DNA of 64,000 bases, taken from NCBI GenBank assembly GCA_020186115.1, contig WSYJ01000113.1, positions 62,001-126,000 of the forward strand, read 5' to 3'. This document shows, piece by piece, positions 22,402 to 46,684 of this stretch. Source of the stretch: Histomonas meleagridis. Lineage: Eukaryota > Parabasalia > Tritrichomonadida > Dientamoebidae. The notes under the pieces are model-generated. The model saw only the letters and a list, made by a program, of their open reading frames with translations. It searched no databases and had not been told where the DNA came from. Position numbers and translations under genes: made by a program. Every line of letters starts with the position of its first letter. Position 1 is the stretch's first letter.

Positions 22402-22499
22402 TAGATTTATGATGGGTATTCTCGTTTCATCTGTTTTATTTAAGAATAGATCTTTATCAATTTCATAACTTCTCCATTTATCAATTGTTTGTTTTAACT

Positions 22500-24510: not shown

Positions 24511-24513
24511 GTG

Positions 24514-24600
24514 ACACACACACACACAGCGCTATTGAAGCTTCGCGTGATACGCTCGCTTCAAGCCGCGCTACATAAAAGAAAGCATTAACGACGAGAG
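24514..24600. repeat. Left terminal inverted repeat of the 22-kb element
   Basis: (AC)n followed by AGCGCTATTGAAGCTTCG, an ACGCTCGCTTC part and GCGCTACATAAAAG. It matches the reverse complement of 46607-46684 at roughly three quarters of positions over about 70 bp. Because the dinucleotide run is in opposite orientation on the two sides, it belongs to the repeat rather than to a target-site duplication. Confidence 0.7.
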
Positions 24601-24661
24601 GATGATTGAAAATTAGGATTAACGGTCGAGTTTAAAATAAGCATGTGCGAAAAAATCTAAC

Positions 24662-24769
24662 TATAACCTGTAACGTAACGTTACCGGTTACTTTGACATT
24701 TTGGAAAAAAGAAGAAGAATAAAGAACATGAGATGCAAAAACCAAGGTTACGTTACGTTACAGGTTATA
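24662..24769. repeat. 24-bp inverted repeat near the left end
   Basis: Arms 24662-24685 (TATAACCTGTAACGTAACG...) and 24746-24769 (its reverse complement, one mismatch) are separated by 60 bases. Each arm holds repeated ACGTTAC steps. The place, between terminal repeat and first gene, suits a binding site or origin-like element, but that is inference. Confidence 0.7.
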
Positions 24770-24822
24770 AATTAAGTCTAGTTTTAAAGTAGTAATTTGA
24801 TTTTTTAATGCAACTAAAAAGA

Positions 24823-26191
24823 TGTCAGAAGTTACAATCGACATAAACGACAAATTCTGTTTAATGGACATTAGAAAAAAATAAAAACTATGATTCAAAC
24901 GGAGACGAAGCAATAAATGATTTAAAGAAATGTTTTTTTAGTATGTGATTCAACACCTGAAGTATTCATGTTTAAAGATTATGACGCAGTGAATGATTAT
25001 GTTAAAGTAAGTTATACATCAGAAAACGTTGCGAAAACAAAAAGCTAAAGAAAAGAATTATTGGGAGAAGGACCGAAGGAAATACAACAAAAAACGTTTC
25101 CGCTTGGGATTTATATTTAGAAAATACAGAAATATTTACGGTAAAAGCATTAAAATTTTATTCCGAAGACCCTCAAATTTTTTCTTACTTTAGAGGTTAT
25201 GATTATAAAAAGCTTGATAAAGTAAAAACAGAAATTATACAACCATTTTTAGATCACGTCAGAGAAGTAATAGCAAATGGTAATGAAGAAATTTATAGAT
25301 ATATTCTAATTTGGATCGCAAGCATTCTTCAAAAACCAAATTTCAAAACTGGAGTTGCTTTAGTTATATTAGGAAATCAAGGAACAGGAAAAAATACATT
25401 CTTTACAGATGTAATATGCAAATTAATGGCGAGATACGCAAATGAAAATGTTACGAATATAGAATCAGTAGTCGGTAAATTTAATGCAACATTAGAAAAC
25501 AAAAAATTACTGGTTTTAAATGAATTACAAAGTATTGATACTAATAAATTTTTAAATTCTGATGCGTTAAAATCTATTATAACAGATAAAACAATAAATA
25601 TAAATCAAAAGAATGAACCGATGAGAGAAACAGAAAATGTTGCGAATTTTATAATGGTATCGAATAATGATGTTCCAATAAAGATTGAAAGTTATGATAG
25701 AAGATATGTTGTAACAAAAACAAGTGATAAGCATTTACAAGATTTTGATTATTTCTCAAAACTTGCTGATTCATTCACGCCTGAATTTTATGAAAATTTA
25801 TTTACATTCTTTATGTTAATGGATGTGTCGAAAGTAAATTTAAGAAGAATTCCGAACAGTGAAGCAAAAGAAAATATAAAAGAAGCTTCAATGTCAAGTT
25901 ATGAAATATTCGCTAGAGACAATTACGAAAAAAATCAAAAACATAACAGGTCCTGATTTATTTAATTTATATTGTGATTTTGTTGAAAAAAATAAATTCA
26001 ATAGTTGCAGTTCAAGGACTTTTATTGCAAATATGAAAAAAATTCACTGGAAATGCTTCTGCAAAAAGGATTGATGGAAAAGTATTTAAAGTATATAATT
26101 TATTGCCAGAAGTTTATGATAGGTTTGAAAAATATCACAAAAAATTAGAAGAACAAATAGTTGATGATGAAGTTGATGATGATGCTTTATG
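24823..26191 (+). pseudogene. SF3 helicase (D5/DUF5906 type), frameshifted
   Basis: Open central part 25426-25956 preceded in frame by LENTEIFTVKALKFYSEDPQ and a segment ending at the Walker A GNQGTGKNTFF (about 25370-25400). Walker B is KLLVLNELQ; motif C and the arginine finger are FIMVSNNDVPIKIESYDRRYVV. These are superfamily 3 replicative helicase motifs, as in primase-helicases of viruses and mobile elements. The N-terminal part is split by shifts near 24900 and 25045. Shifts after 25950 and near 26040 move the C-terminus (LLPEVYDRFEKY, acidic DDEVDDDAL end) to other frames. It is different from the helicases in the arms and present only once. Confidence 0.75.
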
Positions 26192-26469
26192 AATATGTTT
26201 ATTTTTATCAAAAAAGTACCATTAAAATTTCAAGGGTTAAAAAATAACCAAAAAGTGAACCCTTTACGAAACGGAGTAAATGAGCATTTTTTGAATGATT
26301 TAACGCAAAAGTTGAATGACAAAAATCAGAATATCTCGTTATATGATAGTTATTTTTATATTATTTACATATCAAACGAATCGCAAAATTATGTACTATT
26401 CAATGCTTATAATTTCATGTTTTAAAATTGATGACATCATAAATTTATTTTTAGATTTTTGTAATTAAC

Positions 26470-27480: not shown

Positions 27481-27724
27481 CCGGTAATTTTTATATTAAC
27501 AGTATAGTGTCGGAGCCTTCCGACATCCGACATGAATTTTGATTTGTGACTTGTTACTGTTACCAGCACATTTTACAGAATTCTGTTTATAAGAATAAAT
27601 TAACAGAAGAAACAACAGACAAAAACAACTAGATGAAAGAATAACAGAAGAAACAAGAATATAATACTTATAAATGTACTGTTAAATGAAGGTATCAAAT
27701 GCTGTTAATTTTGTTACCGCTATT

Positions 27725-27965
27725 GTTACCATCACCTTTAACAGTAATTATAAGAAAACAATGACTCATTCAAATCAAAAACAGCAAAGAAAACTCCGAT
27801 TCACACATAATCGACTTTGAAAATTGTTACCATCACCTTTAACAGTAATTATAAGAAAACAATGACTCATTCAAATCAAAAACAGCAAAGAAAACTCCGA
27901 TTCACACATAATTGACTTTGAAAATTGTTACCATCACCTTTAACAGTAATTATAGAAAACAATGA
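27725..27965. repeat. 101-bp tandem repeat, about 2.4 copies
   Basis: GTTACCATCACCTTTAACAG recurs at 27725, 27826 and 27927, with the intervening sequence almost identical. It lies just beyond the 3' end of the primase-helicase gene and is not seen in the other arm, so it arose after the arms were duplicated or was lost there. Confidence 0.85.
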
Positions 27966-28024
27966 CTCATTATTTAGAATCATTAACTTTTATCATTAAA
28001 TTCAAAAAATAATTACAATATAAT

Positions 28025-30386
28025 TTATCTCTTAACATCAAACTCTCCATTAAATTCTTCATTAAATTCTTCGTCGATTTTCTTTCTATAAAATACACGT
28101 GTATTTCTTCCAAATATTTTATACTGCATTTTATAAATTTCTTTTTTTTTTTTTTTTCTTTCAAATGATTTCTTACTTAGTTTAAAACGATCGTATTTTG
28201 AGTACTGAACGTATAACCGGTTCATTTCTGATACTGTTATATATTCTATTTCTTCGTCATGATATATTGCATTCTTCCAACATTCTTGAATATCATCAAG
28301 GAAATCTTCAAGTGGCGATTCTTTAATGCCTCTAAGTTGATTTTGAACAATCGACGAGTCGTAACGGTCAAATAAATTTCTTTTCACAAAATCATTTAGA
28401 TCTAAAGACATTAAATAATTATATAAAGATAATGGAAAATTAATGTTGTCAATAACATCTTTATCCTTAACAAATTCTGATTCAAAAATGCTTCTTTCTT
28501 TAAATCTAATTATACAAAATCTTGACAGCAAGGCTTGATCTCCTGAATTCAACATACCGTATAAATCCGCGTGATTTGTGTTTAATACGTCGATGGCAAA
28601 ATCATTTTCTTGGCGTGTATCACGATTCATCGATCGCACCGTTTGTGAATTATTAGTCAATCGTTTGATGATATTATTAGTTGTTTTATTTGAATAATTA
28701 TCAGTTGAAAACTCATCATAAGAACGATAAAGCTTTTTGGCAAAACCACCGTTGTGCTTCTCACTTAGTTGTAGTTCATTTATTCCGACTAAGGCAAAAT
28801 TACCATAAAGTTTTTTGAATGAATTGTCGATATATGTTTTTCCAGAATTTCCGGTTGAAGAATATTTAATAAAGAATACTGGAGCTTTTTTACGAAACTT
28901 TAAAGTAAAAGCTGCTATTTTAAGTAGATGATGAAAAGCTTTTATTGCTTCATCATCAAAAAGTTGATCTTCAATCAATCTAATCCATTTACTAATAAGA
29001 TCAGGTTTATCTTCTATTGAGGTATAACTCATTGTGATTGAGGGAGCTCTAAAGAGAGAGAAAATTTTGTCATCATCTCCAATAACTTCAAACCTCACAA
29101 AACTTTTGAATCTATCTCTATTCTTAACGTTTCGTAATTCTTTAAACAAAGATATAGTTTTTGTGTCTGAAATCTTTTTATGCCTTTTACGCATCAGTTC
29201 TTTTTCTTCGTTTGTTGTTGGCAGTGTGATGTCAAAATTGAAATAATTCTGAAGTGATTTTGAATCTAAAATTTGAAAATCAATTTTTCCATCATTGAAA
29301 ACTTTCATTATATAATCTCCCCAATCAGTGAACGCCAAACATTTTATAAGGTTATTTATATAGTCATCAACTGTTGAGAAACGAATCATCTCTTTCAAAT
29401 AATCAGAAAAACAGTATTTAGAATTTAAAAACTCATCTTTAGAAACATTATTTTTTTTAATTAACGGCAATATAAATTTATTATAATAATCATTATTATG
29501 AATTTTTAATATCTTTAATAACACGCCATGATGTTTAGATTTTTTATTTCTATTTCTTGCTATTTGTTCAAAGAATTTATTTTTAGCATTAACTGTTAAA
29601 TCAGCTGTTTCATAAATTTTCATAAACGCATCGTTTATTAAATCGCGATTGATTGTTTCACTTTCAAAAGAATTAAAACCGCAAATTACAGGAAGCAGAG
29701 AAATTTCTTGATCTACTGATTTATTGCAGTCGTTGTGGATTTCAAGATTTTTTAAAACCATTAACTAAAGCATTAAATAATTTTAATTCATTCTCTGGAT
29801 TTCTTTCTTCTGTTTCTTCTTCAAATAATTCTTCATTAAAATTCAATTCTTCATTAAAAACAGTAACTTTTTCGTTTTGTTTCTCAATCAAACTTTCAAA
29901 ATCAATTCCAATCTCATCAAAAAGTATATTTTTTAAATCGTTGAAAGTCATTAATTCATCATTATTGCAATCGTTTATTAATATATACTCACCAATAACT
30001 CCATCGTGATTCTTTGCTTTACTTCCCGGTAATACTACTATCGATCGTTTCTCTCTATCTATCGGAACGAATAAATCAACATCGAACAATTCACAACTGA
30101 AGCATTTAATAAATCTATTCTTATTTAAAGACATCGATTGATCCCAAAAACTATAAATATGAATTCCTCCTGACGCAGTTTTTACAATTTTACACTTATT
30201 AAAAGCTTTAGAATTAAAAGATTTCAAAACTTCTTCTTGTTCACATTTAACGTCTATATCAACAATTGCGTACGGCGATAAATTAGCAAGTAAAGCTTCT
30301 CCGGTTCTTTTTCCGATCTTTACGCCATCGTGTTTTTCATAATTACGCAAAGTTATTTTATCACCAATGAATGTATCGTTATTCAT
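28025..30386 (-). pseudogene. Prim-Pol/SF3 primase-helicase, left-arm copy, one frameshift
   Basis: Start MNNDTFIGDK at 30386. Residues 43-45 DID, 73-78 GGIHIY and 102-104 DVD with a following VVLPGSKAK form the archaeo-eukaryotic primase (Prim-Pol) core. The helicase half has Walker A STGNSGKTY, Walker B-like VGINELQ, motif C VLNTNHAD and Arg finger RFCIIRF. The two halves are in different frames because of one extra T in the run at about 29747-29752. The right-arm copy is open at that point but broken elsewhere. Near the 3' end, 16 bases are a pure T run (28142-28157), giving poly-Lys. Predicted role: primer synthesis and unwinding for replication of the element. Confidence 0.85.
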
Positions 30387-30476
30387 ATTCTTTTTAATGC
30401 TGCTAAAAAAAGTAATTACAACATTAAAACTAAGCTTAATTACAAAACATATTTTTAATATTTTTACGACTAATAA
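30387..30476. promoter_or_regulatory. Divergent promoter region, left arm
   Basis: The 90 bases between the primase-helicase start and the 89-residue gene start must carry both promoters. The region is A/T-rich and includes AATTACAAAACATATTTTTAA. The same spacing and sequence recur at 41161-41250. Confidence 0.5.
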
Positions 30477-30746
30477 ATGGAAACCATTAATGATATTAAT
30501 AACACAGAAGATAACAAAAAACATAGATTAACAAAAAATCAAAAAAGATTGTATATTGATTTTCTAATGCGAGATGATATAAAAGAAATTTTAAAAACAA
30601 TTCCAAAACGTTCACAATTGAATTTTTTAAGAGAAGCTTTTGAAAAAGAAACTGGAATTAAAATATCTCGTCATATAGCTTATTTAATAAAACCCGATAA
30701 CATACCAACAGTTATTTATGGAGGTCAAACTTATATTGTGTGTTAA
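30477..30746 (+). CDS. Small conserved basic protein divergent from the primase-helicase
   Basis: 89 residues, start METINDINN. It is rich in Lys/Arg and predicted mostly helical (RLTKNQKRLYIDFLM, KRSQLNFLREAFEKETG, SRHIAYLIKPDN), ending with a short beta-prone tail (TVIYGGQTYIV). It looks like a small helix-turn-helix DNA-binding protein, perhaps a regulator of the divergent operon; that is inference. The protein in the other arm is identical (40891-41160), which argues that it is real and constrained or recently duplicated. Confidence 0.6.
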   Translation: METINDINNTEDNKKHRLTKNQKRLYIDFLMRDDIKEILKTIPKRSQLNFLREAFEKETGIKISRHIAYLIKPDNIPTVIYGGQTYIVC

Positions 30747-30819
30747 ATATTATTTTTTGTCAACGCTCAAAAACACATCTTGCATTAACGTTATCATCAG
30801 CTTTATCATCATCAGCTTT

Positions 30820-32915
30820 ATCATTCAACGAAAGCATTAATTAAAGAACTCTCGACACATCATTTTTGTTCTTATCATTCAACGAAAGCATTAATTAAAG
30901 AACTCTCGACACATCATTTTTGTTCTTATCATTCAACGAAAAGCATTAATTAAAGAACTCTCGACACATCATTTTTGTTCTTATCATTCAACGAAAAGCA
31001 TTAATTAAAGAACTCTCGACACATCATTTTTGTTCTTATCATTCAACGAAAAGCATTAATTAAAGAACTCTCGACACATCATTTTTTGTTCTTATCATTC
31101 AACGAAAAGCATTAATTAAAGAACTCTCGACACATCATTTTTGTTCTTATCATTCAACGAAAAGCATTAATTAAAGAACTCTCGACACATCATTTTTGTT
31201 CTTATCATTCAACGAAAAGCATTAATTAAAGAACTCTCGACACATCATTTTTGTTCTTATCATTCAACGAAAAGCATTAATTAAAGAACTCTCGACACAT
31301 CATTTTTTGTTCTTATCATTCAACGAAAAAGCATTAATTAAAGAACTCTCGACACATCATTTTTGTTCTTATCATTCAACGAAAGCATTAATTAAAGAAC
31401 TCTCGACACATCATTTTTGTTCTTATCATTCAACGAAAAGCATTAATTAAAGAACTCTCGACACATCATTTTTTGTTCTTATCATTCAACGAAAAGCATT
31501 AATTAAAGAACTCTCGACACATCATTTTTGTTCTTATCATTCAACGAAAGCATTAATTAAAGAACTCTCGACACATCATTTTTGTTCTTATCATTCAACG
31601 AAAAGCATTAATTAAAGAACTCTCGACACATCATTTATTGTTCTTATCATACACCGAAAAGCATTATTTAAAGAACTCTCGACACATCATTTTTGTTCTT
31701 ATCATTCAACGAAAAGCATTAATTAAAGAACTCTCGACACATCATTTTTGTTCTTATCATTCAACGAAAGCATTAATTAAAGAACTCTCGACACATCATT
31801 TTTGTTCTTATCATTCAACGAAAGCATTAATTAAAGAACTCTCGACACATCATTTTTTGTTCTTATCATTCAACGAAAAGCATTAATTAAAGAACTCTCG
31901 ACACATCATTTTTGTTCTTATCATTCAACGAAAAGCATTAATTAAAGAACTCTCGACACATCATTTTTGTTCTTATCATTCAACGAAAAGCATTAATTAA
32001 AGAACTCTCGACACATCATTTTTGTTCTTATCATTCAACGAAAAGCATTAATTAAAGAACTCTCGACACATCATTTTTTTTTCTTATCATTCAACGAAAA
32101 GCATTAATTAAAGAACTCTCGACACATCATTTTTGTTCTTATCATTCAACGAAAGCATTAATTAAAGAACTCTCGACACATCATTTTTTTTTCTTTTCAT
32201 TCAACGAAAAGCATTAATTAAAGAACTCTCGACACATCATTTTTGTTCTTATCATTCAACGAAAGCATTAATTAAAGAACTCTCGACACATCATTTTTGT
32301 TCTTATCATTCAACGAAAGCATTAATTAAAGAACTCTCGACACATCATTTTTGTTCTTATCATTCAACGAAAGCATTAATTAAAGAACTCTCGACACATC
32401 ATTTTTGTTCTTATCATTCAACGAAAAGCATTAATTAAAGAACTCTCGACACATCATTTTTGTTCTTATCATTCAACGAAAGCATTAATTAAAGAACTCT
32501 CGACACATCATTTATGTTCTTATCATTCAACGAAAGCATTAATTAAAGAACTCTCGACACATCATTTTTTGTTCTTATCATTCAACGAAAGCATTAATTA
32601 AAGAACTCTCGACACATCATTTTTGTTCTTATCATTCAACGAAAAGCATTAATTAAAGAACTCTCGACACATCATTTTTGTTCTTATCATTCAACGAAAA
32701 GCATTAATTAAAGAACTCTCGACACATCATTTTTGTTCTTATCATTCAACGAAAGCATTAATTAAAGAACTCTCGACACATCATTTTTGTTCTTATCATT
32801 CAACGAAAGCATTAATTAAAGAACTCTCGACACATCATTTATGTTCTTATCATTCAACGAAAAGCATTAATTAAAGAACTCTCGACACATCATTTTTGTT
32901 CTTATCATTCAGCTT
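30820..32915. repeat. Tandem array of about 38 units of 55 bp
   Basis: Unit TTCTTATCATTCAACGAAAA + GCATTAATTAAAGAACTCTC + GACACATCATTTTTG (54-57 bp). Length varies by one base mainly in the A run (AAA/AAAA) and the T run before GTTC. Units are otherwise almost identical, showing recent expansion. The other arm has only about five units (40540-40825). Short frames here are artefacts. Confidence 0.95.
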
Positions 32916-32990
32916 TATCATTCAGCTTTACATCAACGCTAAAGTCATTAATTTTAAATTATCAATTTTATAATTTTATTTTTTATATAA

Positions 32991-33368
32991 ATGGAGTTAT
33001 TAATTCCAGAAGAATTTTTAAGATATAATATATCATTTTGTTTTGAAGATGAAGAATTCACTAACGCAAACACTATTATAGAAAATATATTTAGAATTTA
33101 CGGCAAACAAAATTTTATAGAGTTTTACTTCGACTTTGACGAATCACAAACGTTTGACAATATAGTATATCGCATTAGAATAAAGAACATAAAATTTGGT
33201 GATTCAAGCATAACGTTTGAAATTCCCGTTTATATTTACGTTACTAACACAAAGCATAGAACGCTGACAAAGAACAATAACAAAGTCGTTTATTTTACAA
33301 AAAACTATGAGACGTTCAGGAATGAAGATGGAGTCGTCATTAAATATTATTATTATTATTTTAGTTGA
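32991..33368 (+). CDS. 125-residue acidic/beta protein of the element
   Basis: Start MELLIPEEFL. Acidic N-terminal third (FCFEDEEF), alternating hydrophobic strands (FIEFYFDFDES, IVYRIRIKNIKFG, FEIPVYIYVTN), ending in a Tyr run. No known motif; a small beta-sandwich is plausible. The copy in the right arm (40083-40460, minus) encodes the identical protein. It lies between the 55-bp array and non-coding repeats. Confidence 0.6.
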   Translation: MELLIPEEFLRYNISFCFEDEEFTNANTIIENIFRIYGKQNFIEFYFDFDESQTFDNIVYRIRIKNIKFGDSSITFEIPVYIYVTNTKHRTLTKNNNKVVYFTKNYETFRNEDGVVIKYYYYYFS

Positions 33369-33379
33369 AAAATCACTAA

Positions 33380-34190
33380 TTAAAAATCAATAATGAATAC
33401 GTTGATTTTAGCATCAAACGTATAAAAATACTTCTTCCGTTCGTGTTATATCAATAATGATTATGTTGATTTAAAACAAGTGGATTTAAGTGCGAACGAC
33501 TTAAAAATACTTCTTCATTCATGTTATATCAATATGATTATGTTGATTTAAAACAAGTGGATTTAAGCGCGAACGACTTAAAAATACTTCTTATGTTTAC
33601 TTATATGTTAATCCTATGTCGATTTTAGCATCAAACGCTTAAAAAATACTTCTTCTGTTTACTTATATGTTAATCCTCTGTCGATTTTTAGCATCAAACG
33701 CTTAAAAAATACTTCTTCCGTTCGTGTTATATCAATAATGATTTCGTCGATTATAGAATTACTGTTAAAACATAAGGCGGTACGATTTGACCACCATCAA
33801 TTTTTTAAAATTCTTTTGGTAACAAAGTAACGAGTCCCAAGTCCCATTTATGTTTATATATAAGTGGCGGAGAGCTCCGACTCCCGACATGAATTTTAAT
33901 TTGTAACTTGGGACCGGGACCGATACATTTAACAGTATAATTAAGAAAAACATTGAACAAATCATAATAAATCGTTAATCCTTTGTCGAAACTAATAATT
34001 ACCTCTTAAAAATACTTCTTCATTTACTGATGAATAACTAATGATACGTCGATTATAAAATTACTGTTAAAACATAAGATGACAGGATCCTGTCGCCATG
34101 AATTTTTTAAATTTTATGACACTGTGCAATTTTGCACACCCTTGATTTTAAAGTTAATTTTAAATCATTAATGTAAATTTTTACTGATTA
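33380..34190. repeat. Intergenic repeat blocks of the left arm
   Basis: Non-coding blocks: GCATCAAACGCTTAAAAA and AATACTTCTTCCGTTCG motifs repeat several times (33400-33760). Around 33825-33925 lies GTCCCAAGTCCC...GGCGGAGAGCTCCGACTCCCG...CTTGGGACC, a stem-forming cassette repeated at 39530-39620, 43875-43975 and, diverged, 27505-27545. CAGGATCCTG palindrome at about 34084-34093. Confidence 0.65.
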
Positions 34191-34194
34191 TAAA

Positions 34195-34431
34195 ATGAGT
34201 AAGTTAACAGTTGACCGCAAAAATAAAATACGAAAGAATCAAGTGATAGATTTTATCGTTTGGTATGATACATTGAAAGATAGTTTAAAAAATATGAGCC
34301 GTTCAAAAATTCAAGAGCTTTATTTAAATGACTCTGGCGTCGCTGTCTCAAATAATTTTGTGGCACAAATATTTAAAAACGACTATTTGATAAAAGGGAA
34401 CAAGGTTTATAGGTTATATGAGCTTGATTAA
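34195..34431 (+). CDS. 78-residue basic helical protein
   Basis: Start MSKLTVDRKNKIRKNQ. Helices VIDFIVWYDTLKDSL, MSRSKIQELYLND and VSNNFVAQIF followed by a short basic tail look like a compact helix-turn-helix. The right-arm copy is shifted by one extra base in the A run after IFK. Function unknown; DNA binding is inferred from charge and helix layout only. Confidence 0.5.
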   Translation: MSKLTVDRKNKIRKNQVIDFIVWYDTLKDSLKNMSRSKIQELYLNDSGVAVSNNFVAQIFKNDYLIKGNKVYRLYELD

Positions 34432-34594
34432 TGACGGCGTTAATGAAAACAAAGACGGAGAGAATGAAGAAGAAGACAAAGAAATACATTAACGAAAAGG
34501 ATTATTTTGAAACGTGTCAAAACAAGAATTTTTTAGTGTGAATGACAAAATTAATTGAAAAAATAAAACGACAAAATTAATTATAAAATATAAA

Positions 34595-35197
34595 TTAAAA
34601 GTCATTCATGAGAAGAGAACGTAATTTATTTTTCTCTTCATTCTCTACAGCAACACAAACTAACGCTCGAAATAAAGCATCCGCCACGTCATCTTTCTTC
34701 TCAACCGACTCGAAAGAACTTATACACTCCTTTTTTGTATTTTTCCAAAAAATTACTTATCAATCGCACACTTAGTTTTTTATGATTCTTTATTCTTTGT
34801 ATTATAACTGATTTTTTAATTTTGAAAATTTACTTTATTTGGATCAAATAATATTATATCTTCAGGTTGAACTGTAATTTAGAGATATAGAAATAATGCT
34901 ATACATTAAACAGCTCGCGATAATGTTTCTGTATTTACTACTGTCGTTTAATAATTCTTTTATTACTTTTCTTCAAATGAAAAGCATATTTTTCAGCAAT
35001 AATTTCAAATATATTTTTAATTGTAATGCTCTATCAATCGAAACTTGAAATTTTGACTTCAGTTTTTGTTAAATCAAACAATTTAATATCAACGGATAGC
35101 TCATTAAAACCTTTGATGTAATCGGAAAATGATTGCAACATAGCGAGATATTTTAATTCCTAATATCAATTGAAACAATAACTTTTTGTTTTTGCAT
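34595..35197 (-). pseudogene. Decayed RuvC-like resolvase, left-arm copy
   Basis: Reverse-complement homologue of the intact gene at 38285-38857. Several indels (for example around 34740, 34880, 35040 and 35160) destroy the frame, although start and stop contexts are still recognisable. One good copy per element is apparently enough, in contrast to the highly conserved small genes. Confidence 0.85.
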
Positions 35198-35219
35198 TTT
35201 AATTAAATTAAAAATTATG

Positions 35220-36507: not shown

Positions 36508-36592
36508 CCAAGGAATATTCAAAATCATTTTGTTTAAAAATATTATTACCATTTTTGTTTTTCGTTTTTGATAACAAATATTTTTGTCATAA

Positions 36593-36972
36593 TTTGAGAT
36601 CTTTATGAAAAATCAACCGATAAGAATTTATTTGAGATCTTTATGAAAAATCAACCGATAAGAATTTATTTGAGATCTTTATGAAAAATCAACCGATAAG
36701 AATTTATTTGAGATCTTTATGAAAAATCAACCGATAAGAATTTATTTGAGATCTTTATGAAAAATCAACCGATAAGAATTTATTTGAGATCTTTATGAAA
36801 AATCACCCGATAAGAATTTATTTGAGATCTTTATGAAAAATCAACCGATAAGAATTTATTTGAGATCTTTATGATAAATCAATCGATAAGAATTTATTTG
36901 AAAGCTTTACGAAAAATTGACGACAAAGAATTTATTTGAAAGCTTTATGAAAAATCAAACAATGAATTTATT
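36593..36972. repeat. 38-bp tandem repeats in the palindrome spacer
   Basis: The unit begins TTTGAGATCTTTATGAAAAA, then TCAACCGATAAGAATTTA. About eight good units start at 36593 with a period of 38, then two diverged units beginning TTTGAAAGCT. They lie only in the 470-bp spacer between the arms. Confidence 0.95.
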
Positions 36973-38284
36973 TGAAACGTCAAATTATAAAAAATGCTAC
37001 TGTTTGTATTTTGAACTCGCGACCTTGACACTTTCTGAAATAAACTATTCAAAATTAATATGTCTTCAGAAATGATATATTGATGTTTTATTTTCAATTT
37101 TAATCAATGCTTTTGCCGTTTGTGATTTCATTATTATTTTTGTAATTATTGAACAACAAATTTTAAGTCATTTATGCTTATTTCAACTTGTTTCAAATCA
37201 ACTTTTGCCGTTAATGATTTCGTCAATAGATCCAGCTAACTCTTAATATTCACGTCATATCATCCGAAAAACGCTAATTTACTCGGATTCGTAAGAGGTT
37301 CAGAAAAAGGGTTCACTTTTTTATTTTTTTAACCCTCAAAATTTTAAAGGTACTTTTCGAAGATCAAAACCTCAGTTAATAAGAACTTTCGACACATCAT
37401 TAATTGAATAACAAGAAATAAGAACTTTCGACACATCATTAAGTTTCTCTTGATTGTTCTGAGGTTTGAGCCTGTTTCTAAGCATTTTTCAGTTCATATA
37501 AGGTACTGCAATTTTGCACATCGTCAGAAGCTGCAATTTCTGAAAAGCCTTTCTCGAATTTTTTTTGTTAGGTTAGTTAGTTAGTTAGTTAGTTGTTAAG
37601 TAGATTTGGAATAATATATAAAAGCAAACATAGAATTAATAACAACTCATAAACGTCCTTGTATTTTCTTGTTATTTTACTTAAAAATTGTTGTTTCAAA
37701 TTCACGTTTGCCGTTAATGATTTTCATTATTGTTTTTGTAATTATTGAATATCAAATTTTAAGTCATTCACACTTAAAAATACTTGTTTCAAATTCACGT
37801 TTGCCGTTAATGTGATTGTATTTATGAAATCATTATTGTTTTATAATTACTGAATATCAAATTTTTAAGTCATTTATGCTTATTTCAACAACGAAAGTAA
37901 ACTTGTTTTAAATTTACATTGCCGTTAATGAATCATTAACAGCTCACGTAAACACTCAATATTCACGTCAGATCATCCGAAAAACGCTAATTTACTCGGA
38001 TTCGTAGAAGGTGAATTTTTTCAGGTGGCATTTCACCTTTGAAAATTAAAAGGTACTTTTTACATCAAAATATAGGATTAATATATATATATCACGTTAT
38101 TATACGAATGTTTTGTCGTTAATGAAATCAATAATGATTATGTTTATGTTTTTATAATTACTGACTTTGAATTTTTAAGTCATTTATGCTCAAATCCACA
38201 TGTTTCAAATTCACGTTGTCGTTAAGTGATTGTGTTGAAAAGCTCTTATTTATGTTTTCATTTATAATTTTTAATTTAATTAAA

Positions 38285-38857
38285 ATGCAAAAACAAAAAG
38301 TTATTGTTTCAATTGATATTGGAATTAAAAATCTCGCTGTTGCAATCATTTCCGATTACATCAAAGGTTTTAATGAGCTATCCGTTGATATTAAATTGTT
38401 TGATTTAACAAAAACGAAGTCAAAATTTCAAGTTTCGATTGATAGAGCATTACAATTAAAAAATATATTTGAAATTATTGCTGAAAAATATGCTTTTCAT
38501 AAAATAATAATTGAACGACAAGTAAAACAAAACATTATCGCGAGCTGTTTAATGTATAGCATTATTTCTATATCTCTAAATTACGTTCAACCTGAAGATA
38601 TAATATTATTTGATCCAAAAAGTAAATTTTCAAAATTAAAAATCAGTTATAATACAAAGAATAAAGAACATAAAAAACTAAGTGTGCGATTGATAAGTAA
38701 TTTTTTGAAAAATACAAAAAATGAGTGTATAAGTTCTTTCGAATCGTTTGATAAGAAAGATGACGTGGCAGATGCTTTATTTCAAGCGTTAGTTTTTGTT
38801 GCTGTAGAGAATGAAGAGAAAAATAAATTACGTTCTCTTCTCATGAATGACTTTTAA
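38285..38857 (+). CDS. RuvC-fold Holliday-junction resolvase (A22/CCE1-like)
   Basis: 190 residues. I chose MQKQKVIV at 38285 rather than the upstream ATG at 38186 because conserved sequence starts there. SIDIGIKNLA (Asp11) is the first RuvC motif; IIIERQ has Glu77; DKKDDVADA supplies Asp160 and Asp163. This is the layout of poxvirus A22 and fungal CCE1/Ydc2 resolvases, with the hallmark GIKNLA. The length fits the family (about 180-190). Predicted to cut four-way DNA junctions, for instance in replication intermediates of this palindromic element. The only intact resolvase copy. Confidence 0.88.
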   Translation: MQKQKVIVSIDIGIKNLAVAIISDYIKGFNELSVDIKLFDLTKTKSKFQVSIDRALQLKNIFEIIAEKYAFHKIIIERQVKQNIIASCLMYSIISISLNYVQPEDIILFDPKSKFSKLKISYNTKNKEHKKLSVRLISNFLKNTKNECISSFESFDKKDDVADALFQALVFVAVENEEKNKLRSLLMNDF

Positions 38858-39021
38858 TTTATATTTTATAATTAATTTTGTCGTTTTATTTTTTCAATTA
38901 ATTTTGTCATTCACACTAAAAAATTCTTGTTTTGACACGTTTCAAAATAATCCTTTTCGTTAATGTATTTCTTTGTCTTCTTCTTCATTCTCTCCGTCTT
39001 TGTTTTCATTAACGCCGTCAT

Positions 39022-39258
39022 TAATCAAAGCCATATAACCTATAAACCTTGTTCCCTTTTATCAAATAGTCGTTTTTTAAATATTTGTGCCACAAAATTA
39101 TTTGAGACAGCGACGCCAGAGTCATTTAAATAAAGCTCTTGAATTTTTGAACGGCTCATATTTTTTAAACTATCTTTCAATGTATCATACCAAACGATAA
39201 AATCTATCACTTGATTCTTTCGTATTTTATTTTTTCGGTCAACTGTTAACTTACTCAT
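39022..39258 (-). pseudogene. 78-residue protein gene, right-arm copy, frameshifted
   Basis: Identical to the left-arm protein up to VAQIFK. One extra base in the T run at about 39074-39079 then diverts the frame to RLFDKREQGL and a stop near 39040. The original downstream codons are still present in the other frame. A homopolymer sequencing error is possible. Confidence 0.6.
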
Positions 39259-40082
39259 TTTATAATCAGTAAAAATTTACATTAATGATTTAAAATTAAC
39301 TTTAAAATCAAGGGTGTGCAAAATTGCACAGTGTCATAAAATTTAAAAAATTCATGGCGACAGGATCCTGTCATCTTATGTTTTAACAGTAATTTTATAA
39401 TCGACGTATCATTAGTTATTCATCAGTAAATGAAGAAGTATTTTTAAGAGGTAATTATTAGTTTCGACAAAGGATTAACGATTTATTATGATTTGTTCAA
39501 TGTTTTTCTTAATTATACTGTTAAATGTATCGGTCCCGGTCCCAAGTTACAAATTAAAATTCATGTCGGGAGTCGGAGCTCTCCGCCACTTATATATAAA
39601 CATAAATGGGACTTGGGACTCGTTACTTTGTTACCAAAAGAATTTTAAAAAATTGATGGTGGTCAAATCGTACCGCCTTATGTTTAACAGTAATTCTATA
39701 ATCGACGAAATCATTATTGATATAACACGAACGGAAGAAGTATTTTTTAAGCGTTTGATGCTAAAATCGACATAGGATTAACATATAAGTAAACAGAAGA
39801 AGTATTTTTTAAGCGTTTGATGCTAAAATCGACATAGGATTAACATATAAGTAAACATAAGAAGTATTTTTAAGTCGTTCGCGCTTAAATCCACTTGTTT
39901 TAAATCAACATAATCATATTGATATAACATGAATGAAGAAGTATTTTTAAGTCGTTCGCACTTAAATCCACTTGTTTTAAATCAACATAATCATTATTGA
40001 TATAACACGAACGGAAGAAGTATTTTTATACGTTTGATGCTAAAATCAACGTATTCATTATTGATTTTTAATTAGTGATTTT

Positions 40083-40460
40083 TCAACTAAAATAATAATA
40101 ATAATATTTAATGACGACTCCATCTTCATTCCTGAACGTCTCATAGTTTTTTGTAAAATAAACGACTTTGTTATTGTTCTTTGTCAGCGTTCTATGCTTT
40201 GTGTTAGTAACGTAAATATAAACGGGAATTTCAAACGTTATGCTTGAATCACCAAATTTTATGTTCTTTATTCTAATGCGATACACTATATTGTCAAACG
40301 TTTGTGATTCGTCAAAGTCGAAGTAAAACTCTATAAAATTTTGTTTGCCGTAAATTCTAAATATATTTTCTATAATAGTGTTTGCGTTAGTGAATTCTTC
40401 ATCTTCAAAACAAAATGATATATTATATCTTAAAAATTCTTCTGGAATTAATAACTCCAT
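40083..40460 (-). CDS. 125-residue acidic/beta protein, right-arm copy
   Basis: The protein is identical to that at 32991-33368. Same position relative to the 55-bp array, on the other strand. Function unknown. Confidence 0.6.
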   Translation of the reverse strand: MELLIPEEFLRYNISFCFEDEEFTNANTIIENIFRIYGKQNFIEFYFDFDESQTFDNIVYRIRIKNIKFGDSSITFEIPVYIYVTNTKHRTLTKNNNKVVYFTKNYETFRNEDGVVIKYYYYYFS

Positions 40461-40539
40461 TTATATAAAAATAAAATTATAAATTGATAATTTAAAATTA
40501 ATGACTTTGGCGTTGATGTAAAGCTGAATGATAAAGCTG

Positions 40540-40825
40540 AATGATAAGAACAAAAATGATGTGTCGAGAGTTCTTTAATTAATGCTTTTCGTTGAATGAT
40601 AAGAACAAAAATGATGTGTCGAGAGTTCTTTAATTAATGCTTTCGTTGAATGATAAGAACAAAAAATGATGTGTCGAGAGTTCTTTAATTAATGCTTTCG
40701 TTGAATGATAAGAACAAAAATGATGTGTCGAGAGTTCTTTAATTAATGCTTTTCGTTGAATGATAAGAACAAAAATGATGTGTCGAGAGTTCTTTAATTA
40801 ATGCTTTCGTTGAATGATAAAGCTG
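40540..40825. repeat. Short 55-bp array, right arm
   Basis: About five units of the same sequence (as reverse complement) as the long array in the left arm, flanked by the same GCTGAATGATAAAGCTGA and GCTGATGATGATAAAGC edges. The difference in copy number is the main cause of unequal arm length. Confidence 0.95.
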
Positions 40826-40890
40826 ATGATGATAAAGCTGATGATAACGTTAATGCAAGATGTGTTTTTGAGCGTTGACAAAAATAATAT

Positions 40891-41160
40891 TTAACACACA
40901 ATATAAGTTTGACCTCCATAAATAACTGTTGGTATGTTATCAGGTTTTATTAAATAAGCTATATGACGAGATATTTTAATTCCAGTTTCTTTTTCAAAAG
41001 CTTCTCTTAAAAAATTCAATTGTGAACGTTTTGGAATTGTTTTTAAAATTTCTTTTATATCATCTCGCATTAGAAAATCAATATACAATCTTTTTTGGTT
41101 TTTTGTTAATCTATGTTTTTTGTTATCTTCTGTGTTATTAATATCATTAATGGTTTCCAT
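40891..41160 (-). CDS. Small conserved basic protein, right-arm copy
   Basis: 89 residues, identical to 30477-30746. Starts 90 bases from the primase-helicase start on the other strand. Confidence 0.6.
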   Translation of the reverse strand: METINDINNTEDNKKHRLTKNQKRLYIDFLMRDDIKEILKTIPKRSQLNFLREAFEKETGIKISRHIAYLIKPDNIPTVIYGGQTYIVC

Positions 41161-41250
41161 TTATTAGTCGTAAAAATATTAAAAATATGTTTTGTAATTA
41201 AGCTTAGTTTTAATGTTGTAATTACTTTTTTTAGCAGCATTAAAAAGAAT
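41161..41250. promoter_or_regulatory. Divergent promoter region, right arm
   Basis: Same 90-base A/T-rich intergenic segment as at 30387-30476. Confidence 0.5.
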
Positions 41251-43630
41251 ATGAATAACGATACATTCATTGGTGATAAAATAACTTTGCGTAATTATGA
41301 AAAACACGATGGCGTAAAGATCGGGAAAAAGAACCGGAGAAGCTTTACTTGCTAATTTATCGCCGTACGCGATTGTTGATATAGACGTTAAATGTGAACA
41401 AGAAGAAGTTTTGAAATCTTTTAATTCTAAAGCTTTTAATAAGTGTAAAATTGTAAAAACTGCGTCAGGAGGAATTCATATTTATAGTTTTTGGGATCAA
41501 TCGATGTCTTTAAATAAGAATAGATTTATTAAATGCTTCAGTTGTGAATTGTTCGATGTTGATTTATTCGTTCCGATAGATAGAGAGAAACGATCGATAG
41601 TAGTATTACCGGGAAGTAAAGCAAAGAATCACGATGGAGTTATTGGTGAGTATATATTAATAAACGATTGCAATAATGATGAATTAATGACTTTTGATGA
41701 TTTAAAAAATATACTTTTTGATGAGATTGGAATTGATTTTGAAAGTTTGATTGAGAAACAAAACGAAAAAGTTACTGTTTTTAATGAAGAATTGAATTTT
41801 AATGAAGAATTAAATTTTAATGAAGAATTATTTGAAGAAGAAACAGAAGAAAGAAATCCAGAGAATGAATTAAAATTATTTAATGCTTTAGTTAATGGTT
41901 TTAAAAATCTTGAAATCCACAACGACTGCAATAAATCAGTAGATCAAGAAATTTCTCTGCTTCCTGTAATTTGCGGTTTTAATTCTTTTGAAAGTGAAAC
42001 AATCAATCGCGATTTAATAAACGATGCGTTTATGAAAATTTATGAAACAGCTGATTTAACAGTTAATGCTAAAAATAAATTCTTTGAACAAATAACAAGA
42101 AATAGAAGTAAGAGATTTAAACATCATGGCGTGTTATTAAAGATATTAAAAATTCATAATAATGATTATTATAATAAATTTATATTGCCGTTAATTAAAA
42201 AAAATAATGTTTCTAAAGATGAGTTTTTAAATTCTAAATACTGTTTTTCTGATTATTTGAAAGAAATGATTAGTTTTTCAACAGTTGACGACTATATAAA
42301 TAACCTTATAAAATGTTTGGCGTTCACTGATTTGGGAGATTATATAATGAAAGTTTTCAATGATGGAAAAATTGATTTTCAAATTTTAGATTCAAAATCA
42401 CTTCAGAATTATTTCAATTTTGACATCACACTGCCAACAACAAACGAAGAAAAAGAACTGATGCGTAAAAGGCATAAAAAGATTTCAGACACAAAAACTA
42501 TATCTTTGTTTAAAGAATTACGAAACGTTAAGAATAGAGATAGATTCAAAAGTTTTGTGAGGTTTGAAGTTATTGGAGATGATGACAAAATTTTCTCTCT
42601 CTTTAGAGCTCCCTCAATCACAATGAGTTATACCTCAATAGAAGATAAACCTGATCTTATTAGTAAATGGATTCAATTAATTGAAGATCAACTTTTTGAT
42701 GATGAAGCAATAAAAGCTTTTCATCATCTACTTAAAATAGCAGCTTTTACTTTAAAGTTTCGTAAAAAAGCTCCAGTATTCTTTATTAAATATTCTTCAA
42801 CCGGAAATTCTGGAAAAACATATATCGACAATTCATTCAAAAAACTTTATCGAGATTTTGCCTTAGTCGGAATAAATGAACTACAACTAAGTGAGAAGCA
42901 CAACGGTGGTTTTGCCAAAAAGCTTTATCGTTCTTATGATGAGTTTTCAACTGATAATTATTCAAATAAAACAACTAATAATATCATCAAACGATTGACT
43001 AATAATTCACAAACGGTGCGATCGATGAATCGTGATACACGCCAAGAAAATGATTTTGCCATCGACGTATTAAACACAAATCACGCGGATTTATACGGTA
43101 TGTTGAATTCAGGAGATCAAGCCTTGCTGTCAAGATTTTGTATAATTAGATTTAAAGAAAGAAGCATTTTTGAATCTGAATTTGTTAAGGATAAAGATGT
43201 TATTGACGATATTAATTTTCCATTATCTTTATATAATTATTTAATGTCTTTAGATCTAAATGATTTTGTGAAAAGAAATTTATTTGACCGATATGATTCA
43301 TCAATTGTTCAAAATCAATTGAGAGCCATTAAAGAATCTCCGCTTGAAGATTTCCTTGATGATATTCAAGAATGTTGGAAGAATGCAATATATCATGACG
43401 AAGAAATAGAATATATAACAGTATCAGAAATGAACCGGTTATACGTTCAATACTCAAAATACGATCGCTTTAAACTAAGTAAGAAATCATTTGAAAGAGA
43501 GCTGATGGAAAAAGAAATTTATAAGGAACAAATAAAAATATTCGGTAAAGTCACTCGTGTATTTTATAGAAAGAGAATTGATGAAGAATTTGATGAAGAA
43601 TTTGATGAAGAATTTGATGTTAAGAGATAA
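41251..43630 (+). pseudogene. Prim-Pol/SF3 primase-helicase, right-arm copy, one frameshift
   Basis: Start MNNDTFIGDK at 41251. One extra G in TCGGGAAAAAG (41321-41330) shifts the frame after about 25 codons. From 41411 the frame is open for 739 codons to 43630, spanning the GGIHIY primase motif, Walker A (about full-length residue 515, STGNSGKTY), INELQ, VLNTNHAD and the Arg finger. Compared with the left copy it has an additional FNEELN repeat near 41790-41830 and DEEFDEEFDEEF at the end. Since each arm copy is broken at a different base, neither gives a full protein as read. Confidence 0.87.
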
Positions 43631-44539
43631 ATTATATTGTAATTATTTTTTGAATTTATGATATCATTTATTTTTTGCAGTCGACGAATAAGTTTATGAT
43701 ATATTTTTATGGTTCAAGTTATGATATCAATTTTTTCTTAATTATACTGTTAAAAGTGATGGTCCCAAAAATTAAAGCTAATGGTACTAATCAATATAAC
43801 ATCACTTTTAGGATTATTATCCGTTTGTTTTTTCCGTTAATCATTCAGTTAATTGTATTTTCCTGTTAATTGTATCGGTCCCAGTCCCAAGTCACAAATC
43901 AAAATTAATGTCGGGAGTCGGAGCTCTCCGCCACTTATATATAAACATAAATGGGACTTGGGACTTGGGACTCATTAATTTAAAAAAAAATCTAAAATCA
44001 CACAACCATTAACGACTCACATTATTTTAAAACAAGTTTACGTTCGTTCAATTTATCAGCGTTTATTGCAACATTCGACAAAGGATTAATGATAAAACAT
44101 TAACATTAGATGTAGATTTATGCGTTTGCTTGCTTATTTCGACAAAGGATTAATGATAAAACATTTATTAAAACAAGTTTACGTTCGTTCAATTTATCAG
44201 CGTTTGTTACAACATTCACAAAGGAATTAATGATATATCATTATTTTAAAACAAGTTTACGTTCGTTGAATTTATCAGCGTTGATTGCTAAAATCGACAA
44301 ATCACTCACACACACGAATGAAACATCAATTTTTAAGTGTTAATTACAAAAATCTAAAAATAAATTTATGATGTCATCAATTTTAAAACATGAAATTATA
44401 AGCATTGAGGTCTTAAGACCGAAGAATATTTTAGAAGTAAACCTAACAACCTAACCTAACTTAACTTAACCTAACAAAAAAAATTCGAGAAAGCCTTTTA
44501 TGAAATTCAGCATTTTGCATAGTATGTGATTTTCTTCTT

Positions 44540-45878
44540 GTTTCTAACGGTTGACCTTTTATTAAAATGTTCTTTAACGACTTTCAATAATGAAAAGCTT
44601 CTTGTTGTTAAATCTGTTCCGAAGTAATTATTATACATATCACACAATTCACCAATCTCTAATTCTCCGTCAGGAACTGAAGCAAGAAATGAATCAAAAC
44701 TTAATTCAATACTCTGAACTTTTGTTTTTTACTTCTTGTTTCTCTTCTGTATTAATTCCTAAATTCTCCATTAACGTTTGAATATAATCGGAAAATCTAC
44801 TTTCTAATACTTCCGGTAAGTCTCTAATTAAAATTTGATTTATATCTCTTACGATTGACTGAGCATAAACTTTTATTGCAGTTGAATTTTCAAATGTTAT
44901 TGAACTTTTAGCTATTGAACCGATGGAGTTTTTTCATAAAATTATAAATGGTCATAAAATGATCAGAAATGAAATTTTTTCAAATGATTTCTTTAAATAT
45001 TGTTCAATTGTTAAATACTCTTCTGTTTCATTAAATTGTATTTTTGCGATTAGAAATTGTAATCTATTAATTAAAGTTTGATTGTGTTCGGTAAACGCTT
45101 TAATTACTTTTTGTGATGACTTAGTATCAAATACGTTTCTTATAGTTTTTTCATATTTATTTCGACTTATTTCATCAAAAGCATTTTTATACATATCGTA
45201 ATACTCGTCCAACAATTCCGTATAATTCTTATTGACACATTCATGAACAAATTCATTAAGATTTCTTATCACATCTTTGTTTGAATGTGGTATAGATAAA
45301 TATTCAATCAATCTCTTTCTCTCTTCTTCCTGTTCTTTCTGCAAACATTTTTCTTTCCATTCGCCAAGCTTGAATTTTTGATCATTTATCCAACAATCGC
45401 ATAAAACAATTTCATCTTGAAGTTCTTGTTCCATTTCTTTGTAAATGTGATTCTCACGATAATATTTATTTATTAATCTATCTTCAATTATTTCGGGAAG
45501 GTTCTTTTGCATATTCTTTAAATTTTCAATATCTTCTAAATCATCTTTATCTAATTCATATTTTCCGATAATAGCGTCATATTGTTTTAATTTCTTTTCG
45601 ATTTTATGATCTAAAGTATCATATGAATCATCAAAATTTTCATTAACGTAAGTTTCAATAACTTCTGGTTCAAAAAGTTTTAATTTCTCTTCGCAGTGCT
45701 TCTTGCAATTTTCAAGATGTTCAATATTCCAATTTAACGAAGTGAAATAGTTTGATTGTGGTTTGAAAACCTCAATCGGACAATCATTAATAGTACATTT
45801 CATTAAACTTTTGCCGTAAACGTAAACGTAATTTTCAAGAGTTGCTGTTGCAGTAAGTGGAACTAACTTATCACACAT
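44540..45878 (-). pseudogene. Coiled-coil protein with possible zinc-binding N-terminus, 3' part broken
   Basis: The open part (44952-45878, 308 codons, start MCDKLVPLTA) has an N-terminal region with CTINDCPIEVF, H and C residues in a spacing that recalls FLYWCH/WRKY-GCM-type zinc fingers (weak), then about 200 residues of charged helices likely to form coiled coil. Two TGA codons follow in the same frame near 44935-44950, after which the reading continues (SIGSIAKSSITFENS, RDLPEVLESRFSDYIQ). After a shift near 44700 comes a DGELEIGELCDMYNNYFGT segment. Unique to the right end of the element. Function unknown. Confidence 0.45.
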
Positions 45879-46026
45879 TTATATACAAATAAAAAAATTA
45901 AATTTAAAAAAAACTAACTTTATTTTTTCTGAGCAAACAAGCGTTTTCTGAACTACAACATCAAGAAACAGCACTAAATACAACATTCAACATAAAAATA
46001 AGCCTTTTCCGTCAATTAATCATCAT

Positions 46027-46412
46027 CAGCAGCAGTAAACATGTAAAATTCACGTCATATCATCAAGTTAGAATTCAACCTCAAAAATATATGGACTTTT
46101 ACGAAAAGGCTTTCTCGAATTTTTAATGGTAGGTTAAGTTAAGTTAGGTTAGGTTGTTAAGTAGCAGTAGAAATATTTTAACAACAACACACAACTTTCC
46201 ACATAGGATTAACATCAAAACACAACTTTCGACATAGAATTAACAGCAACTTTTCCGTGAACTTATAGTTAGCAGCAGTAAACATGTAAAATTCACGTCA
46301 AGTCATCAAGTTAGAATTCAACCTCAAAAATATATGGACTTTTACGAAAAGGCTTTCTCGAATTTTTAATGATAGGTTAAGTTAAGTTAGGTTAGGTTGT
46401 TAAGTAGCATAT
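46027..46412. repeat. Two direct copies of a 140-bp cassette
   Basis: 46027-46166 and 46268-46412 share CATGTAAAATTCACGTCA, TCAACCTCAAAAATATATGG, GAAAAGGCTTTCTCGAATTT and a GGTTAAGTTAAGTTAGGTTA run. Related cassettes occur in the arms. No gene. Confidence 0.8.
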
Positions 46413-46606
46413 AAAACTTTAAGCTCCAAACACTAAAATCTACATAGGATTAACAACAAAACACTAAAATCCACATAGTATTAACAACAACTCAGCCGGA
46501 TTCATGCATCACACATTTAAAAAATAAATGTCATCATGAATTTAAATATATTTAATTACTTTCAATCAAAACCAACCGATTTATGAAAATCAATCGCGTT
46601 TACACC

Positions 46607-46684
46607 GTTCATCCTTTAGTTTATGTAGCGCGAGTGGGAGCGAGTGCGTAGCACGAAGCTCACATAGCGCTGTGTGTGTGTGTG
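46607..46684. repeat. Right terminal inverted repeat of the 22-kb element
   Basis: Reverse complement reads AGCGCTATGTGAGCTTCG...CTCGCGCTACATAAAC, matching the left end, followed outward by (TG)n. Confidence 0.7.

What the first reader, a model, noticed from the sequence alone, without database searches (positions are those of the whole stretch)
24528..46671. A 22-kb element built around a giant palindrome, with Prim-Pol/SF3 helicase and A22-like resolvase genes
Seen: inverted ends, arms of 10.1 and 7.4 kb, a 470-bp spacer, Prim-Pol and SF3 motifs, RuvC motifs, and no recognisable PolB, integrase, ATPase or capsid. Known: A22-like resolvases in poxviruses resolve concatemers joined through inverted telomere repeats. 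Inference: this may be a trapped head-to-head replication form, or an element that always keeps its replication module as an inverted pair. I know of no described trichomonad element with this layout.
Basis: partly seen in the sequence, partly recalled or inferred. Interest (0 to 1): 0.92.

Follow-up and report, generated by a model that had tools for sequence, protein, structure and literature searches.

The report
Palindromic satellite of Polinton-type mobile elements
In the genome of the poultry parasite Histomonas meleagridis there is a small family of mobile elements built as near mirror images of themselves, with two facing copies of their replication genes, and with end sequences shared with the virus-like elements living in the same genome.

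Summary
In window 24514-46684 two arms (27991-36507 and 36978-43663, 97% alike) flank a 470-bp spacer; each arm holds a primase-like/SF3 helicase, an 89-aa and a 125-aa gene. The host is Histomonas meleagridis.

It is not a one-off. C74, C88 and C4 have the same mirror layout, and C38 is palindromic around its centre. C74:511541-533106 is symmetric end to end, in unrelated flanks, with ATTCA outside both ends. C38 arm blocks differ by 0.25-3.1% but by about 22% from the window copy. Arms are each other's closest relatives throughout C74, in one block of four in C61, and not in C88 and C4. A second primase-helicase family was unpaired at 10 of 10 loci counted.

The ends match those of a 23-kb Polinton at C99 (integrase, A32 ATPase, candidate capsid). 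The window element lacks these genes.

Best reading: a Polinton-dependent satellite that keeps a palindromic form, its arms copied from each other, perhaps by fold-back of a replicating strand. 'Trapped dimer' and 'assembly artefact' are disfavoured for C61 and C74. No raw reads were available.

The parts
24514..46684 (.). whole element, end to end (C61 copy)
   Evidence: inverted (AC)n-AGCGCTAT ends; end motif 78 times in the genome with up to 3 mismatches, reversed control 0
24514..24600 (+). left inverted end (variant 'A')
46600..46684 (-). right inverted end (variant 'B'; 183 bp at 99.5% with the end of the C99 Polinton)
27991..36507 (+). left arm of palindrome
36978..43663 (-). right arm of palindrome
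36508..36977 (.). 470-bp spacer, mostly a 38-bp tandem repeat (36592-36975, 10 copies); in C74, C88, C4 and C38 the spacer instead holds a 152-aa gene or (C38) an interrupted copy
28025..30524 (-). left-arm primase-like/SF3 helicase gene, in two overlapping open frames (28025-29761 and 29742-30524)
41113..43630 (+). right-arm primase-like/SF3 helicase gene, in two open frames (41113-41355 and 41411-43630)
38186..38857 (+). A22-like RuvC-family resolvase, open (right arm)
   Evidence: Pox_A22 E 5.6e-9; D44, E110, D193, D196 invariant in 6 sequences; AlphaFold2 model mean pLDDT 86.5
34598..35296 (-). left-arm resolvase copy, interrupted by 11 in-frame stops
32991..33368 (+). 125-aa gene, left arm (identical protein in both arms)
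40083..40460 (-). 125-aa gene, right arm
30477..30746 (+). 89-aa gene, left arm
40891..41160 (-). 89-aa gene, right arm
30818..32911 (.). 55-bp tandem array, 38 copies (left arm)
40538..40820 (.). 55-bp tandem array, 5 copies (right arm)
25426..25956 (+). 176-aa ORF like the C-terminal part of a second SF3 helicase family, in the non-palindromic left outer part
   Evidence: DUF5906 E 5.4e-16; 59 matches genome-wide
44952..45878 (-). 308-aa ORF in the non-palindromic right outer part, 31-32% identical in part to ORFs of the C27 element

Best explanation
This is one copy of a small family of mobile elements that are palindromes along much or all of their length and carry Polinton ends. SHOWN: copies consist of two arms around a short spacer; the arms hold a primase-like/SF3 helicase, a 125-aa and an 89-aa gene; in C74 and in the deeply diverged C38 the two arms resemble each other far more than they resemble other copies; about 1.5 of the outer 2.2 kb of the C74 copy matches, at 95-98.6%, the terminal repeat of a Polinton in the same genome. 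INFERRED: the element is a satellite that supplies its own start of replication and is integrated (perhaps also packaged) by Polinton proteins acting on the shared ends; the palindrome is a standing part of its life cycle; sequence is copied between arms, most likely when a displaced single strand folds back into a long duplex stem with the spacer as loop, so that mismatches between arms are repaired.
For: Mirror layout in C61, C74, C88 and C4, and around the centre of C38. C74:511541-533106: outer ends 98.6% alike, centre 98.3%, four blocks between them 0-0.61% different, flanks unrelated, ATTCA outside both ends. C38: arm blocks 0.25-3.1% apart, about 22% from the window copy. In each of C61, C74, C88 and C4 both arms carry the same type of inner block and of centre, and C74 joins a window-type block to a C88/C4-type centre in both arms. 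Constraint: dN/dS C61-C38 0.14 (helicase) and 0.11 (125 aa); spacer gene C74-C38 0.08. Clustered arm differences in C61. Ends shared with the C99 Polinton, which itself has CCTAC outside both ends and appears to split another capsid-like gene. No integrase, PolB, ATPase or capsid found in the element. Control: second primase-helicase family 0 of 10 counted loci paired.
Against: No reads were available. Arm homogenisation is clear only in C74 (4 of 4 blocks) and C38; in C61 the arms are each other's closest relatives in 1 of 4 blocks, and in C88 and C4 an arm of another copy is as close or closer in all four blocks, so exchange between copies matters too. A direct repeat was seen by eye at 2 of 6 end pairs (C74, C99; not C8, C114, C1, C61), and its length depends on where the (AC)n run is cut. 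No expression, excision or extrachromosomal form was shown. The helicase gene of the window copy is interrupted in both arms. The C61 outer parts are not palindromic. Fold-back repair and ordinary gene conversion predict much the same sequence pattern. That a Polinton integrase acts on these ends is inference.
Confidence: 0.55

Rival explanations
1. The palindrome is an old structural accident in a Polinton-derived element, and arms are kept alike only by ordinary gene conversion between repeats in the chromosomes, as in Y-chromosome palindromes. It has no role in the element's life cycle.
For: Clustered identity between the C61 arms; C88, C4 and C61 arms are often as close to other copies as to each other, as general exchange among repeats would give; the window's helicase genes are interrupted.
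Against: The layout has outlived synonymous divergence of 0.66-1.6 between copies while genes stayed constrained, and at C74 a whole palindrome stands between two 5-bp direct repeats.
Confidence: 0.27
2. Trapped head-to-head dimer: a replication intermediate of a single-arm element integrated and was fixed.
Against: A dimer joint would not be expected to hold a conserved unique gene; the spacer gene is shared by C74, C88, C4 and C38. Among the nine close helicase loci none is a plain single-arm element, though C38 lacks the outer part of one arm and the C2 and C13 fragments could not be judged.
Confidence: 0.1
3. Assembly inversion: the assembler folded a repeat back on itself.
For: At C88 and C27 the mirror symmetry runs on beyond the element ends into flanking sequence (99.87% over 3 kb at C88; about 250 bases seen at C27), near contig ends, which a fold-back error would give.
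Against: C61 and C74 have unrelated flanks on the two sides; the C61 arms carry 126 substitutions and very different array lengths; direct repeat at C74; C38 arms are alike yet about 22% from the window copy.
Confidence: 0.05

Closest known systems
Polinton/Maverick elements of parabasalids
   Same: Terminal sequence: 1520 of the outer 2229 bases of C74 match the C99 terminal repeat at 95-98.6%; HNH genes occur in the C99 Polinton and an A22-like gene in the C82 Polinton.
   Different: No PolB, integrase, A32 ATPase or capsid gene found; palindromic build; own primase-like/SF3 helicase, not seen in the C99 stretches read.
Polinton-like viruses and virophages with primase-SF3 helicase
   Same: Primase-helicase in several members, terminal inverted repeats (PMC4642659, passages seen).
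   Different: They are defined by capsid and packaging genes, not found here; that their terminal repeats cover only part of the genome is recalled.
Foldback (FB) elements
   Same: Very long inverted termini with internal tandem arrays (recalled, not tested).
   Different: Here the arms hold conserved genes in mirror-image pairs and the ends belong to Polintons.
Teratorn
   Different: 41-182 kb herpesvirus plus piggyBac (same passage); different genes.
Mirror-image and copy-back genomes (poxvirus terminal transposition, adenovirus symmetric defective genomes, palindromic rDNA minichromosomes; all recalled)
   Same: A linear replicon made of two copies of one end.
   Different: Those arise anew or are special forms of a replicon; here the symmetric form is inherited, integrated and has its own conserved spacer gene.

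Membership tests
Polinton/Maverick | protein-primed PolB | tested here: not met
   Pfam on ten ORFs; tblastn with the C99 PolB-like protein; no C61 row (that search also missed the C99 protein)
Polinton/Maverick | RVE integrase | tested here: not met
   Pfam; tblastn; none of the 40 genome hits lies in C61:86514-108684
Polinton/Maverick | capsid proteins and A32 packaging ATPase | tested here: not met
   tblastn with the C99 candidate capsid and A32 proteins; none of the 87 capsid-like matches listed lies there (81 of 125 candidates scored)
Polinton/Maverick | shared terminal inverted repeats | tested here: met
   183 bp at 99.5% between window and C99; 1520 of 2229 outer bases of C74 at 95-98.6%
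Polinton/Maverick | 6-bp target duplication (length from PMC10045372, passage) | tested here: inconclusive
   5 bp by eye at C74 (ATTCA) and C99 (CCTAC); none at C61, C8, C114, C1
Polinton-like virus | major capsid, minor capsid and packaging ATPase | tested here: not met
   minor capsid not tested on its own
A22/RuvC resolvase family (the 38186-38857 gene only) | family profile and conserved acidic residues | tested here: met
   Pox_A22 36.7 bits, cut-off 22; PHROG RuvC-like E 4.8e-5; D44, E110, D193, D196 invariant in 6 sequences (that these are catalytic is recalled)
A22/RuvC resolvase family (the 38186-38857 gene only) | fold matching solved resolvases | not tested
Primase-SF3 helicase | SF3 helicase domain | tested here: met
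   PHROG primase E 1.8e-9 over residues 369-705; DUF5906 just below cut-off in the window, just above in P0001
Primase-SF3 helicase | archaeo-eukaryotic primase domain at the N terminus | tested here: inconclusive
   PHROG primase E 9e-4; motifs by eye; structure prediction could not be started
Foldback elements | arms of short tandem repeats without conserved genes (recalled) | tested here: not met
   arms encode constrained genes

The most novel reading that the evidence does not exclude
A naturally self-complementary mobile element: its single strand folds into a duplex of up to 10 kb with a roughly 0.5-kb loop, which makes both ends and nearly all genes double-stranded at once, renews the palindrome and erases arm differences at each cycle, while Polinton proteins integrate or package it. 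It would be a Polinton satellite for which the palindrome is the mode of replication.
Probability: 0.28. Interest if true: 0.9.

Novelty: new variant of a known kind. Interest (0 to 1): 0.72.

Why it matters
Long palindromes are normally unstable (general knowledge) and are seldom kept as the genome of a mobile element. A family that has kept this form across deep divergence, with arms that evolve together in at least two copies and with end sequences shared with a resident virus-like element, would be a test case for how palindromic replicons are copied and for satellite parasitism on Polintons. The copies are few and the published genome was read with long reads, so the claim can be checked directly.

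Tried and rejected
Rejected: A22 as the cause of the architecture (no match in C74, C88, C4 or C38). Rejected: C88 and C27 as evidence for boundaries, because their flanks are mirrored too. Rejected: contig-end hits as a sign of telomeres; in the ones looked at the element lies on the contig-end side, as repeat-broken contigs would give. Led nowhere: relatives of the primase-helicase in viral contigs and in bacterial and archaeal genomes, none by these pattern-based scans; A22 relatives in viral contigs, 3 at 27-30%; solved-structure searches, nothing significant; the 308-aa ORF against the C99 DUF3839 protein, no likeness. The Pfam PolB search of the genome (11 matches) did not list the C99 PolB-like protein, so that label rests on motifs seen by eye and a weak NCBIfam hit.

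Literature: the listings of searches showed no paper that, by title or start of abstract, describes such an element (one search listed 15 of 44, 8 of 25). Passages only were read of PMC10120064, PMC10045372, PMC8529796, PMC6431247 and PMC4642659. The library lacks most subscription papers and all bioRxiv preprints.

Rows left out of counts: for the helicase, the fragments at C2 and C13, the 48-59% copy at C61:58766-60070 and the 24-35% hits; nine loci were typed by hand, and the C88 left locus has 51% identity over its long, stop-rich row and 92% in a shorter one. For the second helicase family, rows at C61:640953 (51%) and C94 (29%) were left out. The capsid list held 75 of the 87 rows. Capsid-like loci did show divergent neighbours (10 of 54 merged loci); I call them unlike copies only because their identities to the query differ by 14 to 42 points. 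One search computed the clustering index from 31 of 35 bins typed by hand; one search repeats it on all 35.

Full report
HOST. A relative (96% identical) of a capsid-like protein found in this genome is named 'GO595_000377 [Histomonas meleagridis]' and lies on a contig of 1,375,363 bases, exactly the length of C1 here. The size, 43.28 Mb, fits the published 43-Mb genome assembled from Nanopore and Illumina reads (PMC8529796, passages). The window is C61:62001-126000.

THE OBSERVATION. The element runs from 24514 to 46684, with inverted ends (AC)n-AGCGCTAT.... Its arms, 27991-36507 and 36978-43663, are 97% alike around a 470-bp spacer. The arms differ by 126 substitutions in 6380 aligned bases outside the 55-bp array, and by 38 against 5 copies of that array. 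The differences are clustered, from none to 31 per 200 bases. The outer parts, 24514-27990 and 43664-46684, are not mirror images apart from repeats and the ends. The left end is a variant 'A', the right end a variant 'B' shared with the C99 Polinton (183 bp at 99.5%).

GENES. Each arm encodes a primase-like/SF3 helicase pointing outwards, interrupted at a different place in each arm, a 125-aa and an 89-aa protein. The right arm has an open A22-like resolvase, the left arm a broken copy. Six relatives of the helicase (39-87% identity) were found in public protein data, the closest being 784 aa long.

OTHER COPIES. A search of the whole genome with the helicase found divergent inverted pairs at C61, C74, C88 and C4, one more copy at the start of C38, 3'-end fragments at C2 and C13, and a 48-59% copy at C61:58766-60070. 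The 125-aa and 89-aa genes pair in the same way at C61, C74, C88 and C4. C74:511541-533106 is the best case: outer 1.94 kb 98.6% alike between the two ends, centre 98.3%, four blocks between them 0 to 0.61% different, a spacer of 596 bp with a 152-aa gene, and unrelated flanks with ATTCA outside both ends. C88 and C4 have nearly the same centre as C74 (98% overall, with one stretch at 94-97%). C38 is older: 13-17% different from the others in the helicase and 125-aa blocks and about 22% from the window copy in a third block, yet its own two arms differ by 0.25% there, 0.6% in another block and 3.1% over a longer one. Its spacer matches that of C74 (81%). Its right arm ends early and lacks the second helicase and the second 125-aa gene; an HNH gene stands there.

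ARM AGAINST ARM. In C74 the arms differ by 0.61, 0.44, 0.00 and 0.48% in four blocks and are each other's closest relatives in all four; other copies (C38 apart) are about 1-7% away. In C61 the arms differ by 1.45, 0.67, 0.64 and 0.48%; only in the last block are they clearly each other's closest, and in the others the right arm is closer to an arm of another copy (0.99, 0.44, 0.00%). In C88 and C4 an arm of another copy is as close or closer in all four blocks. What holds in C61, C74, C88 and C4 is type: both arms of a copy carry the same version of the fourth block and of the centre, and C74 joins a window-like block to a C88/C4-like centre in both arms. So sequence does pass between arms, and also between copies.

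CONSTRAINT. Between C61 and C38 dN/dS is 0.14 for the helicase (dS 0.66) and 0.11 for the 125-aa gene (dS 0.81); between C74 and C38 it is 0.08 for the spacer gene (dS 1.6, near saturation) (simple counting method). Between the recent copies C61 and C74 the helicase gives 0.38. The genes were kept working while the layout was already in place; the present copies may be decaying.

CONTROLS. A second primase-helicase family was counted at 10 loci, none in a divergent pair within 25 kb; capsid-like loci showed divergent neighbours at 10 of 54, between copies of unequal identity to the query. Several of the 10 lie near contig ends, so a partner could be missing there. The end motif occurs 78 times and its reversed control 0 times.

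RELATION TO POLINTONS. C99:260797-283908 looks like an ordinary Polinton: RVE integrase (E 6.8e-8), A32 ATPase (E 5.7e-6), DUF3839, an HNH gene, a 430-aa protein with PolB-like motifs (by eye; weak NCBIfam hit E 8.5e-5; not listed by the PF03175 search), and a 536-aa candidate capsid protein with 344 relatives, not confirmed by profile or fold. That five parabasalid species carry such capsid genes is reported in PMC10120064 (passage). Its terminal repeats are about 2.2 kb, CCTAC stands outside both ends, and pieces of another capsid-like gene lie on both sides of it. Of the outer 2229 bases of C74, 1520 match this terminal repeat, in pieces at 95-98.6%; the rest includes an HNH gene. At C82 an A22-like gene, 39% identical to the window's, lies next to PolB-like and DUF3839 sequence. 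So ends, HNH and A22 look like Polinton material; the primase-helicase module was not seen in the C99 stretches read.

HOW IT WORKS. Shown: layout, likeness of arms as described, shared ends, one palindrome standing between 5-bp direct repeats. Inferred: integration by Polinton integrase, because none was found in the element; own start of replication through the primase-helicase; copying between arms. For the copying I favour a folded single strand, since the spacer would be its loop and each of the five copies has one, but gene conversion in the chromosome fits almost as well.

LIMITS. No reads; mirrored flanks at C88 and C27 show that this assembly may contain fold-back errors near palindromes; C4 is a lone 15.5-kb contig without flanks; direct repeats at 2 of 6 end pairs, two of which (C114, C1) may not belong to one element; the primase half rests on a weak hit; fold comparison was unavailable.

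Noticed in passing
window 18283-24513: LINE-type retroelement pieces (reverse transcriptase E 7e-30) on the minus strand, abutting the element's left end after a 126-bp repeat (24285-24513); similar sequence lies at 14636-16106.
   Followed up: partly
window 16275-16982 and 50799-50093: A 709-bp inverted repeat (92.8%) on either side of the element; a related piece lies near an integrase hit on C84.
   Followed up: no
window 46590-47090: A 166-aa ORF whose last codons run into the right end of the element, as if the element had interrupted a gene.
   Followed up: no
L068/L069 (C88:431400-434399 and 458501-461500): Mirror symmetry runs on past the element into flanking DNA at 99.87%: an assembly fold-back or a large inverted duplication.
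   Followed up: partly
L073 (C27:471900-478500): A small palindrome with a DUF5906 gene at its centre sits at the centre of a larger palindrome, with mirrored flanks as far as seen.
   Followed up: partly
C99:260562-285298: A complete-looking Polinton appears to be inserted inside the capsid-like gene of another one.
   Followed up: partly
L074 (C8:273043-277662): A 4.6-kb element with the same ends and repeat-rich inverted arms, longest ATG-started ORF 110 aa, like a non-autonomous derivative.
   Followed up: partly
window 30818-32911: The 55-bp array has very strong GC skew (-0.38) and differs 38 to 5 between arms.
   Followed up: no
genome-wide: 87 capsid-like matches in the genome, although the published repeat annotation lists only 0.22% DNA transposons and its main text does not contain the words Polinton or Maverick (PMC8529796, passages).
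   Followed up: partly
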